Below are positions 4,674-33,874 of a stretch of 64,000 nucleotides of DNA, in pieces. How positions within the stretch are numbered: position 1 is the first letter of the stretch; each line of letters begins with the position of its first letter. The notes below the pieces were generated by a model. The model searched no databases, was not told the DNA's origin, and was given only the letters and a program-made list of their open reading frames with translations. The stretch covers positions 9,374,501 to 9,438,500 of the forward strand of contig OU015655.1 in the NCBI GenBank assembly GCA_907165275.2, given 5' to 3'. A program made the translations under genes and the position numbers. The DNA is from Zygaena filipendulae (Eukaryota > Arthropoda > Insecta > Lepidoptera > Zygaenidae).

Positions 4674-4913
4674 GGACATAGATAAGCAATAGGGTGTTAA
4701 CCCACACTGGAGAAATTTTGAGTAAATCGTGTTTTAAACGCAATTGTGCCATTTTCTGTCAACATTTTTTTATGTTCAACAATTTGATAGTATTCAAAAA
4801 ATGTAATGAGGTAAAAACATAATTAAAAAACGTTCCGTATATAACTCTCAATAAAGCTTTTTGTACCAATAACTTAATGATGTGGGTTAACATGTTATTG
4901 CTTATCGGTATCC
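4674..4913 (+). mobile_element. GATAAGCAATA MITE, copy A
   Basis: About 240 bp with terminal inverted repeats built on GGAyryAGATAAGCAATA followed by TGTTAACCCACA. The left end is at 4,674-4,707 and the right end is its reverse complement, ending at 4,913. The internal sequence ATAATTAAAAAACGTTCC is shared with copy C at 50.7 kb. Short direct repeats CATAC (4,669-4,673 and 4,913-4,917) flank it, overlapping the right end by one base. There is no coding capacity, so it is a non-autonomous DNA transposon. Confidence 0.85.
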
Positions 4914-4930
4914 ATACATAGTTTACCTAT

Positions 4931-5167
4931 GGACGCAGATAAGCAATAACATGTTAACCCACAATATTAAGTTATTGATTCAAAACGCTTTATTGACAGT
5001 TATAGTGCGTTTTTTTAATTATGTGTTCACCTTATTACATTGTTTAAATACCAAAAAACATTTAAACATAAAAAAATGCTGAAACAAAATGACAATATGA
5101 TTTTAAAACACGATTTATTCGAAATTTCTCCAATGTGGGTTAACACACTATTGCTTATCTATGTTCC
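4931..5167 (-). mobile_element. GATAAGCAATA MITE, copy B (inverted)
   Basis: Second copy, in opposite orientation to copy A and only 17 bp away. Its left end GATAAGCAATAACATGTTAA starts at 4,938 and its right end CACACTATTGCTTATC stops at 5,159; the outer GGA/TCC bases extend it to 4,931-5,167. CCTAT flanks both sides (4,926-4,930 and 5,166-5,170). Together, A and B form a ~490-bp palindrome able to fold back on itself. Confidence 0.85.
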
Positions 5168-27990: not shown

Positions 27991-28422
27991 TTATTCGTTT
28001 GAAAGGACTATCAATGCCATTATGTGATGAAATATAACATCTTTCAAATGTCCGCCGTTGCTTGAGGGTGGTGTGCATCCGAAGTCAAGACGCAAAATTC
28101 GCCAAGTTGTCGTCAGCGAAAGGCTGAGTTCTTGTGAGCGACGCGAAATAAACTGCCTCGGATTCTCCTGCACACTCTCACGGACAGCGGCGATGTTTTC
28201 GGCAGTTCTTGCGTTTCGTCGACGTACGGGTATTGGTTGATTGTTTACTGAACTAGTGGGGTCAAATTTATCCACCACACTGCAAATAGTCCTCTCGGTA
28301 GGACGATTATGGCTAAGCGCACGGAACGTTGCCCGAACAGAACACCCATTTTGATAAAACAATTGCATCATTTGCACGTGTTGTTGAACGCTATTATACA
28401 TCCGCCTATGGTGATTTGGCAA
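27991..28422 (-). pseudogene. Internally deleted DDE transposase (DUF4817/Tc1-mariner-like)
   Basis: A 143-residue open frame. Residues ~13-55 form a helix-turn-helix segment (QLFYQNGCSVRATFRAL... TERTICSVVDKF) like the DUF4817 domain of insect IS630/mariner-type transposases. Residues ~70-113 continue the linker with the family-like run RTAENIAAVRESVQENPRQF and the second helix-turn-helix TTTWRILRLDFG. The frame then jumps straight to GGHLKDVIFHH, which resembles the protein's extreme C-terminus. The catalytic DDE/D domain of roughly 150-200 residues is missing, so the product cannot transpose. The frame stays open across the join, so a truncated DNA-binding protein could in principle be made. 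On the minus strand, sequence upstream begins near 28,527 with GGGTCTTCCAATAGGGACTT, a plausible transposon end; its inverted partner was not found on the other side. Confidence 0.8.
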
Positions 28423-31922: not shown

Positions 31923-32419
31923 TCAGTACGCCTAGCACGAACATATAAAGTATTCGTAACGTAAACGTATCGAGTCTACTATTCGATCACGCAGTAAAAC
32001 GTTAGTAGGCAGCACGAAGCACTTTCGCCGTCGTATAGTAAGCTCGATAGGGCAACGAAGGTGACGTCATCCTAACGTAAATAGGGCCGTCCCCGCGAAT
32101 GAACTAATTCAGCGTAATGAACGAATGAAACGAATGAAACGTTTAGAAACGAGTTACAGAAGTCTTAAAAATTAAAATTAATACTATATATTATGATATT
32201 CGAGTGAAATTTTAGAGAAATTAACAAAAATATAAAACTTTGTACAATATCCTTACATTACGGTAAGAAAATATAAATATTGGTCCATAATTTTTTTTAA
32301 GATAATATTATTTTTTATATTGTGATTTCTGAACGGTCATACATTGTTGTTTAGAAGTTCCACCGGAGATTTAAAGTTCCACAAAGTTTTCGCTGTTACC
32401 ATAAAATTGTGTTTTAATT

Positions 32420-33055
32420 ATGAGGACAAGTCATTTGCAATATTTAACTATGATAGAGTTTATGGAAAGGTACGTAAAGTGAAATATCATGTTTTATTAA
32501 CAAGATTTCTGAAACTACAGTGGTGTTATTCGTGAGCCTGTACCTACTAGCATGCTCGTATTTTCGATATTGTTTATTTTGTAGAAATGGTGACCTATCT
32601 AAACCGTCTGGATATTATATTTATATTTATTTAGTTATGGAATTAGCAGATAAATTAAATAGTGACGGAACAGGCGACTCTCGATCGGAGGAGAAATGGC
32701 GCAAGGTATGCAATCTCAAGTGGTTTATTCTTTTAAGTGTTCGACCTTTATTTACATTTCATTTAAACCAATGCCACGTACTTATAATTTTTTTATCAGT
32801 TTTGGCTGCAATGTTTTGTATTTCGTCATTGTGAAGGTGTGGAGTGATTTAAAAAATAATACTAAGAGAAAGCGAGCAAAAATAAATAGAGCTGCAAGCG
32901 GCACTGGTGGTGGACCTGCACTTCATTTATCTTGGACTGACCTTAAAATGTCATGCATGGTCATGGTCATGCAAATAATTGGAGTGGAGGCAGCAGCTAC
33001 TGGCATGGGGGTGGTGGAAGCTGGGTTTCAGCAGGTTTTCATTTATGTATTTTAG
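32420..33055 (+). CDS. Myb/SANT (zeste-like) DNA-binding protein, three exons
   Basis: Exons: 32,420-32,469, 32,585-32,705 and 32,837-33,055. Introns of 115 and 131 bp have canonical boundaries (AAAG|GTACGTAAAG...TTTTGTAG|AAA and CAAG|GTATGC...TGTGAAG|GTG), and the joined frame is open for 129 residues. The start was chosen as the first in-frame ATG. Exon 1 encodes a short helix ending MIEFME; exon 2 runs NGDLSKPSG to KLNSDGTGDSRSEEKWRK; exon 3 starts VWSDLKNNTKRKRAKINRAA and then SGTGGGPA. The tryptophans W55 and W59, the basic KRKRAK helix and the TGGGPA motif are the signature of the insect Myb/SANT-like (regulatory protein zeste, Myb_DNA-bind_5) domain. Residues ~27-35 (YYIYIYLVM) are an odd AT-rich tract where family members usually have a polar segment, and the end after TGMGVVEAGFQQ is irregular: CAG|GTTTTC at 33,034/33,035 may be a further donor. 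An AATAAA lies at 33,269. It probably binds the transposon ends; no host role can be shown. Confidence 0.72.
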
Positions 33056-33399
33056 TGTCACTCTAGGTATCATTATATTGTTTTATAAACATATTAAAAA
33101 CTTGTGTAGTAAGATAAAATGCATCTAAATGCTATTTTCAATAACTATCATTTTGAATTCCCTAAATAATAATAATGTTTTAGTATTTTACACAAAATTT
33201 TTGTAAGAACACAGATTTATTTACTTCCGAATTTAGATAAAGTTATATTTACGACTTATTTCCCTGTAAATAAATAAAAAAAATTTTATTAAAAAAATAG
33301 GTATGTATCTAAAATAACTTTACAATAGTACTAATAGAAAAACTTAATAAAACTATAGTTATAATAATGCCTAGACAACTCCTTGTTTAAAGCACTTAC

Positions 33400-33500
33400 A
33401 CAGTTTCTCTTTGTTCATTATTATCGCTCTCAATCTCAATTAATCTCGCTGCAAGATAATAATATAATGCACTACGTTCAACCCTGGGTGCTCGTTGCAT
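33400..33500 (-). CDS. Orphan first exon, probable transposase gene remnant
   Basis: On the minus strand an ATG (33,500-33,498) opens a frame MQRAPRVERSALYYYLAARL... of 33 complete codons rich in Leu, Ala and acidic residues. It ends at a textbook donor ACTGT|GTAAGT at 33,400/33,399. It lies inside the same inverted-repeat element as the Myb-like gene and points toward it, as the transposase gene does in two-gene Harbinger elements. No following exon is visible in the ~345 bp before the Myb-like gene, so the remaining gene appears deleted. The product itself is not recognised; the transposase assignment is inference from position. Confidence 0.4.
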
Positions 33501-33874
33501 TTTTTTATAAATATAAGCACTTCGAAACACTAAACACACTGAAATATTAATAAAATCTTGTTTCCGAATTCACGACGCAAGTTTTTACACCGACAAATCT
33601 TCCGTGACAAAACATTCGTAAGTCTCGATAGCCAGCTATCGTCACTTACGATTCTATACGTCAAAAAACAATTCGTGCTCGCAAAGTATTGCAAAGTTAG
33701 TGTAAACATCATACGCTACGAATACCGCACGCTTACGTTACTATAGGAAAGGCTTCGTGCTACCAAATTTAGTTCGTTTTACGTCCGCTAGAGGCGCTGT
33801 TAATTTCTCATACAAATAGTTTACGTTAACGATACGAATACTTTTTCGCAAGTTGTTCGTGCTAGGGGTACTGA

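What the first reader, a model, noticed from the sequence alone, without database searches (positions are those of the whole stretch)
32420..33055. A compact spliced Myb/SANT gene that open-frame scanning misses
Seen: three small pieces join through two canonical GT-AG introns into one open 129-residue frame with the W..L....K.KRAK and TGGGPA signature of insect zeste-like Myb domains. All splice sites and the frame are intact although the flanking element is non-autonomous. Inference: either a young copy, or a transposon-derived DNA-binding gene kept by selection. The AT-rich tract YYIYIYLVM in the middle argues for some decay.
Basis: partly seen in the sequence, partly recalled or inferred. 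Interest (0 to 1): 0.75.

Follow-up and report, generated by a model that had tools for sequence, protein, structure and literature searches.

The report
Broken helper gene in shortened transposon
This is the front part of a jumping gene's DNA-binding helper gene, left behind in a shortened, non-autonomous copy of a transposon in what looks like a moth or butterfly genome; the spliced frame is there on paper, but sister copies show it decaying rather than being kept as a new host gene.

Summary
The splice model is real: 32420-32469, 32585-32705 and 32837-33055 join through two GT-AG introns into an open 129-aa frame, with lepidopteran relatives (best E 3.1e-40). It is not a compact complete gene. 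The same genome holds three full-length ~4.5-kb copies and one lacking its left end. In L021 the Myb/SANT gene has five exons (281 aa), opposite a 378-aa DDE_Tnp_4 transposase. The window element (31927-33870, 1944 bp) is one of 14 internally deleted copies found, which lost Myb exons 4-5 and nearly all of the transposase. The final VFIYVF* is read-through into intron 3. All 14 short copies share a replaced stretch in exon 2 (38 nt by 26) inside the Myb domain. Of the 14, 8 carry stops or frameshifts, 3 more lack the ATG, and 3 stay open, the window included. Changes among them look near neutral, on small numbers (16 nonsynonymous, 5 synonymous, ratio 0.88). So the frame is a by-product of internal deletion in a PIF/Harbinger-like family with mostly CWG target triplets (NuwaI-like), presumably mobilised in trans. 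Ordinary.

The parts
31924..31926 (.). left target-site triplet CAG
   Evidence: CWG is the commonest kind of triplet at this place in the other copies
31927..33870 (+). internally deleted PIF/Harbinger-like transposon with CWG-type target, 1944 bp, non-autonomous
   Evidence: terminal inverted repeats; other copies end at the same points; a 150-bp flank on each side matches only the window's own place in the genome
32420..32469 (+). Myb gene exon 1
   Evidence: identical to L021 exon 1
32585..32705 (+). Myb gene exon 2
32613..32638 (+). 26-nt AT-rich stretch that stands in place of 38 nt of exon 2 (residues YYIYIYLVM), shared by 14 of 14 short copies
32837..33034 (+). Myb gene exon 3, with a 12-nt insertion seen only in this copy (1 of 19) and a 3-nt insertion shared by 14 of 14 short copies
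33035..33055 (+). start of intron 3, read as coding in the finding (VFIYVF and stop)
   Evidence: donor GT follows GFQQ in the five-exon model of L021; CAGCAG|GTTTTC is present in 19 of 19 rows, and the same read-through residues in the long copies
33243..33250 (.). approximate junction of the internal deletion (about 2.56 kb of the long element missing)
33250..33263 (-). 14-nt remnant of transposase exon 2
33400..33500 (-). remnant transposase exon 1 (97% identical to L021)
33871..33873 (.). right target-site triplet CTG

Best explanation
The window holds a non-autonomous deletion derivative of a two-gene PIF/Harbinger-type (PHIS) DNA transposon in what is, by its relatives, a lepidopteran genome. 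Long copies of about 4.5 kb carry a five-exon Myb/SANT gene and, on the other strand, a six-exon DDE transposase (shown by sequence). One ancestor lost about 2.56 kb (Myb exons 4-5 and nearly all of the transposase) and had 38 nt of Myb exon 2 replaced by 26 nt (shown as shared by all 14 short copies). Its descendants spread, presumably because proteins of long copies act on the shared ends (inferred from the open genes of long copies and from published work on rice and zebrafish elements). The Myb remnant is carried along as ballast and decays; in the window it happens still to be open.
For:: 14 short copies align with the window straight across the junction; 4 long copies (one, L020, without left end) match it in two blocks with about 2.56 kb between; 14 of 14 short copies carry the same exon-2 replacement; 5 of 5 others (4 long plus the 3'-truncated L022) have the conserved sequence; 8 of 14 short copies have stops or frameshifts, 3 of 14 only lack the ATG, 3 of 14 are open; short copies form one clade, support 100/100; 16 nonsynonymous (2 of them stops) and 5 synonymous distinct changes among short copies over 107 codons, ratio 0.88. 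Myb 281 aa in L021, open in L020, L023 (277 aa) and L024; transposase 378 aa, open in 4 of 4. DDE_Tnp_4, E 3e-37. CWG at both ends in 12 of 16 copies with both ends readable; neighbouring locus tags or the same contig size for Myb-like and HARBI1-like proteins in several Lepidoptera.
Against: The window and two other short copies keep open frames with ATG, and the four splice sites of introns 1-2 are GT/AG in 14 of 14 short copies. Each short copy against L021 gives pN/pS of 0.09-0.56, below 1, though on 3-6 synonymous and 2-6 nonsynonymous changes and including time before the deletion. The distinct-change count is against the majority codon, not polarised by the tree, and leaves out indels and the replaced stretch. 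Codon position 1 varies less (4 of 123) than introns (22 of 246) in short copies. Mobilisation in trans was not shown. No empty site was found for the window insertion, and only 8 of 16 copies have identical triplets at both ends.
Confidence: 0.94

Rival explanations
1. A domesticated Myb/SANT host gene derived from the transposon and kept by selection.
For: Open frame and intact splice sites in the window; co-domestication of a PIF transposase and its MADF gene in Lepidoptera is published (PMC9710019, sections 3 and 7 read).
Against: It sits inside an element with terminal inverted repeats and 13 sister copies; 8 of 14 are broken and 14 of 14 have part of the Myb domain replaced; changes near neutral on small numbers. 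The published lepidopteran domesticates lack inverted repeats and target duplications, and their transposases are single copy.
Confidence: 0.02
2. The shortened Myb protein is made and interferes with transposition, as truncated products of some deletion derivatives of other transposons do (recalled).
For: Three short copies remain open, and the basic stretch KNNTKRKRAKINRAA is the same in the window as in L021.
Against: The stretch around KWKEL of the Myb domain is replaced in 14 of 14 short copies, and 8 of 14 frames are broken. One helix substitution in the Myb-like domain of rice Ping ORF1 gave no detectable excision (PMC2836001, passages read), so a replaced stretch is unlikely to leave normal DNA binding.
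Confidence: 0.04

Closest known systems
NuwaI group of the PHIS (PIF/Harbinger, ISL2EU, Spy) superfamily (PMC4482050; passages and section 7 read)
   Same: Two genes (DDE transposase; Myb/SANT protein), CWG target triplets, autonomous length near 4.5 kb.
   Different: Ends begin TAC rather than the usual GGG; the paper lists NuwaI in 12 bony fish, a coleopteran, a crustacean, a mollusc and an anthozoan, not in Lepidoptera. The transposase tree was not made here.
PIF/Harbinger non-autonomous derivatives such as mPing (with Ping/Pong) in rice (PMC2836001, passages read)
   Same: Non-coding or partly deleted copies presumably moved by two proteins of a coding relative.
   Different: The window copy still carries three exons of the Myb gene and transposase exon 1, and is 1.9 kb rather than a few hundred bases (mPing length recalled).
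Lepidopteran protein models named 'uncharacterized protein', 'Regulatory protein zeste' or 'putative nuclease HARBI1'
   Same: Protein relatives of both genes: Trichoplusia ni 66% for the window's Myb frame; Ostrinia nubilalis 91% for the transposase of L021 (the window itself keeps only exon 1 of it).
   Different: The closest models (P0001, P0002, P0003) keep the SG(G/A)xRGRH stretch and the KW(K/Q)EL motif that the window has lost.

Membership tests
PIF/Harbinger (PHIS) superfamily | DDE_Tnp_4 transposase | tested here: met
   For the long copy L021: PF13359 E 3e-37 over profile 1-158 of 158. The window itself keeps only exon 1 and 14 nt of exon 2.
PIF/Harbinger (PHIS) superfamily | second gene with Myb/SANT-like domain | tested here: met
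   L021 Myb, PF13873 E 2.1e-7, best stretch profile 38-78 of 78; window frame E 1.7e-4, profile 43-78.
PIF/Harbinger (PHIS) superfamily | terminal inverted repeats | tested here: met
   Arms 31923-31943/33854-33874 (95%) and 31947-31969/33822-33844 (91%).
PIF/Harbinger group in the narrow sense | TWA target duplication | tested here: not met
   No TAA or TTA triplet at either end of the 16 copies with both ends readable; the right end of L018 is unclear.
NuwaI group | CWG target duplication | tested here: inconclusive
   CWG at both ends in 12 of 16 copies, but identical triplets at both ends in only 8 of 16 (one of them CCG/CCG), and 5 of 16 differ in the central base, the window included; no empty site found for the window insertion.
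NuwaI group | inverted repeats usually beginning GGG | tested here: not met
   Ends begin TAC. The paper says 'usually', so this is not strictly defining.
NuwaI group | transposase falls in the Nuwa clade | not tested
   No reference transposases were aligned.
domesticated PIF Myb/MADF gene | single copy, no inverted repeats, purifying selection | tested here: not met
   14 short copies with inverted repeats, 8 of 14 broken; ratio 0.88 among short copies.

The most novel reading that the evidence does not exclude
The truncated exon 1-3 product of the still-open short copies is translated and titrates the transposase or the full Myb protein, so that the deletion family damps its own parent element.
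Probability: 0.04. Interest if true: 0.55.

Novelty: new member of a known kind. Interest (0 to 1): 0.2.

Why it matters
It shows how an open spliced frame inside a transposon can look like a kept gene when it is a truncated remnant. It also points to a family, in what appears to be a lepidopteran, with near-identical long copies in which both genes are open and the target is mostly CWG, which would suit tests of two-protein transposition.

Tried and rejected
Domestication was tested by copies, frames and changes and rejected. A dN/dS test of the Myb gene of L021 against the related fragment L025 was uninformative: pN/pS 0.78 over 208 of 221 codons, but L025 is itself decayed, with a stop, indels and a poor alignment. 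Origin of the exon-2 filler as a copy of sequence about 340 bp upstream: 3 of 60 AT-rich control stretches from the window matched as well or better, so only suggestive. Solved structures by sequence: nothing convincing (2 hits at E<=10, best 0.15). Paralogous empty site for the window insertion: none, both flanks match only the window's own place. Structure prediction was not run; it would not settle whether a broken copy is used. Expression could not be tested. L026-L028, around weaker matches, were fetched but looked at only.

A genome-wide protein search for other Myb relatives did not complete, so selection on the intact gene within this genome was not measured. Copy counts come from searches that call themselves lower bounds. 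In one search the printed check of the third donor was taken two bases too far and shows TT; the donor GT at 33035-33036 is read.

Full report
Observation. The three pieces and two GT-AG introns are as described and give a 129-residue open frame. Relatives are strong: 35 hits at E<=10 among 49 candidates, best 3.1e-40; every hit that bears an organism name is from Lepidoptera. Pfam gives Myb_DNA-bind_5 at E 1.7e-4, but only over the second half of the profile. Many alternative GT/AG pairs also give open frames, so the support for this model comes from homology and not from openness.

Alignment with 17 of the 35 relatives showed trouble: the conserved stretch SGGPRGRHxxQxKWKEL of the closest ones is replaced by SGYYIYIYLVMEL, and exon 3 holds a four-residue and a one-residue insertion. 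P0023 (Bombyx mori) runs on after exon 3 into a long charged tail that the window frame lacks. P0009 reads through a stretch placed between KV and KVWSD, at the place of the window's intron 2, which fits a shared splice site; its DNA was not seen.

Copies in the same genome. The window lies in a 366-Mb assembly of 56 contigs. The 641-bp gene stretch has 24 matches, 19 of them near full length at 91-100% identity, the window included. I fetched 20 stretches: 16 hold the other 18 near-full copies, 4 lie around weaker matches. Against the window the 19 fall into 14 short elements (window included; L009 and L012 hold two each), four long ones (L020, L021, L023, L024; L020 lacks the left end) and one 3'-truncated copy, L022. 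A search with the right end finds 18 copies, 14 short and 4 long, plus two small partial matches. A search with the inner part of the long element finds the four long copies at 98-100%, one related fragment at 85%, and many hits to a repeat of about 200 bp inside it. The tool calls such counts lower bounds.

The intact genes. L021 carries a five-exon Myb gene of 281 aa with GT-AG introns and, on the opposite strand, a six-exon transposase of 378 aa, also with GT-AG introns and a full-length DDE_Tnp_4 domain. The joined exons of both genes are open in L020, L023 and L024 too; the L023 Myb is 277 aa. Transposase splice sites were checked in L021 only. The best transposase relative is an Ostrinia nubilalis protein at 91% (120 of 579 hits listed). 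In Operophtera brumata (OBRU01_23999, OBRU01_24000), Plutella xylostella (JYU34_015081, JYU34_015079) and Mythimna loreyi (PYW08_006136, PYW08_006138) the Myb-like and HARBI1-like proteins have close locus tags and the same contig size, and in Papilio machaon, Colias eurytheme and Chilo suppressalis the same contig size, as expected for a two-gene element. I did not look at those contigs.

What the window copy lacks. The short element misses about 2.56 kb. It keeps Myb exons 1-3, transposase exon 1 (33400-33500, minus strand) and 14 nt of transposase exon 2.

Decay. In 14 of 14 short copies 38 nt of exon 2 are replaced by the same 26 nt, so the YYIYIYLVM tract is inherited and not drift in this copy. 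Seven of 14 have TGG to TAG in exon 2 (L009a, L009b, L012a, L014, L015, L016, L019); L012a has a second stop; L016 has a one-base deletion; L018 and L019 share an eight-base deletion. L009a, L011, L012b and L017 have GTG for ATG. Together 8 of 14 are broken by stop or frameshift, 3 more only lack the ATG, and 3 (window, L010, L013) are open. Against the majority codon, distinct changes among short copies over 107 codons are 16 nonsynonymous, two of them stops, and 5 synonymous, a ratio of 0.88 after site correction; they are few, not polarised, and leave out indels. Comparison of each short copy with L021 gives ratios of 0.09-0.56 on very few changes; this includes evolution before the deletion and does not show present constraint, but it is not evidence for neutrality either. 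Variable sites in short copies: codon position 1, 4 of 123; position 2, 9 of 123; position 3, 8 of 124; introns, 22 of 246; other non-coding, 34 of 686.

Tree. The short copies form one side and the five others the other, support 100/100; nearest to the window is L010, 99.5% identical. The TAG state needs at least 3 changes on that tree, which fits spread from several sources, exchange between copies or poor resolution; 6 of 16 inner branches are drawn open.

Mechanism. Shown: shared ends, one shared deletion, one shared exon-2 replacement, long copies with two open genes. Inferred: the short elements moved with proteins of long copies. This rests on published work: in rice and reconstructed zebrafish elements both proteins are needed for transposition, and in the zebrafish case the Myb-like protein binds the element and is needed to bring the transposase to the nucleus (PMC9710019, section 3 read; PMC2836001, passages read). 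One change in the Myb-like helix of Ping ORF1 gave no detectable excision, so the replaced exon-2 stretch very probably disables the product here.

Classification. The superfamily features are met by the long copies. Ends were read in 18 of the 19 copies (L022 left out); 16 have both ends. The triplet is CWG at both ends in 12 of 16, like NuwaI (PMC4482050), and not TWA. But the ends do not begin GGG, identical triplets occur in only 8 of 16, and no transposase tree was made. I therefore call it NuwaI-like, not a proven NuwaI member. In the listings of my six paper searches I saw no title or abstract describing this family in Lepidoptera; papers on transposons or MITEs of Helicoverpa, silkworm and Heliconius were listed (PMC9033116, PMC2997013, PMC4016481) but not opened, and only open-licence papers are held, so this is a weak statement.

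Verdict. A real but ordinary transposon remnant: truncated, with part of its DNA-binding domain replaced, and still open in 3 of 14 short copies.

Noticed in passing
window 31924-31926 and 33871-33873; L010, L014, L019, L021: Five of 16 copies with both ends readable have CWG at both ends but a different central base (CAG on one side, CTG on the other), including L021, which is 99.8-100% identical to three other long copies in the aligned left part. Later mutation seems an unlikely cause; the central base of the target may not be simply duplicated.
   Followed up: partly
L021 about 4729-4940 (intron 4 of the Myb gene): A repeat of about 200 bp, abundant in the genome (the first look gave 4839 candidates, 40 scored), sits inside an intron of the long element.
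   Followed up: no
window 27991-28401, minus strand: A 136-aa ORF with a DUF4817 helix-turn-helix domain (E 1.4e-8), perhaps part of another mobile element.
   Followed up: no
L009 3273-7020: Two short copies lie with their left ends facing, 8 bp apart; about 120 bp of the left end of one is missing at the junction.
   Followed up: no
P0001 (public protein, Trichoplusia ni, 123 aa): This model ends GFIQV just where exon 3 ends in L021, which would fit a model that stops by reading into intron 3, as the window frame does; its DNA was not looked at.
   Followed up: no
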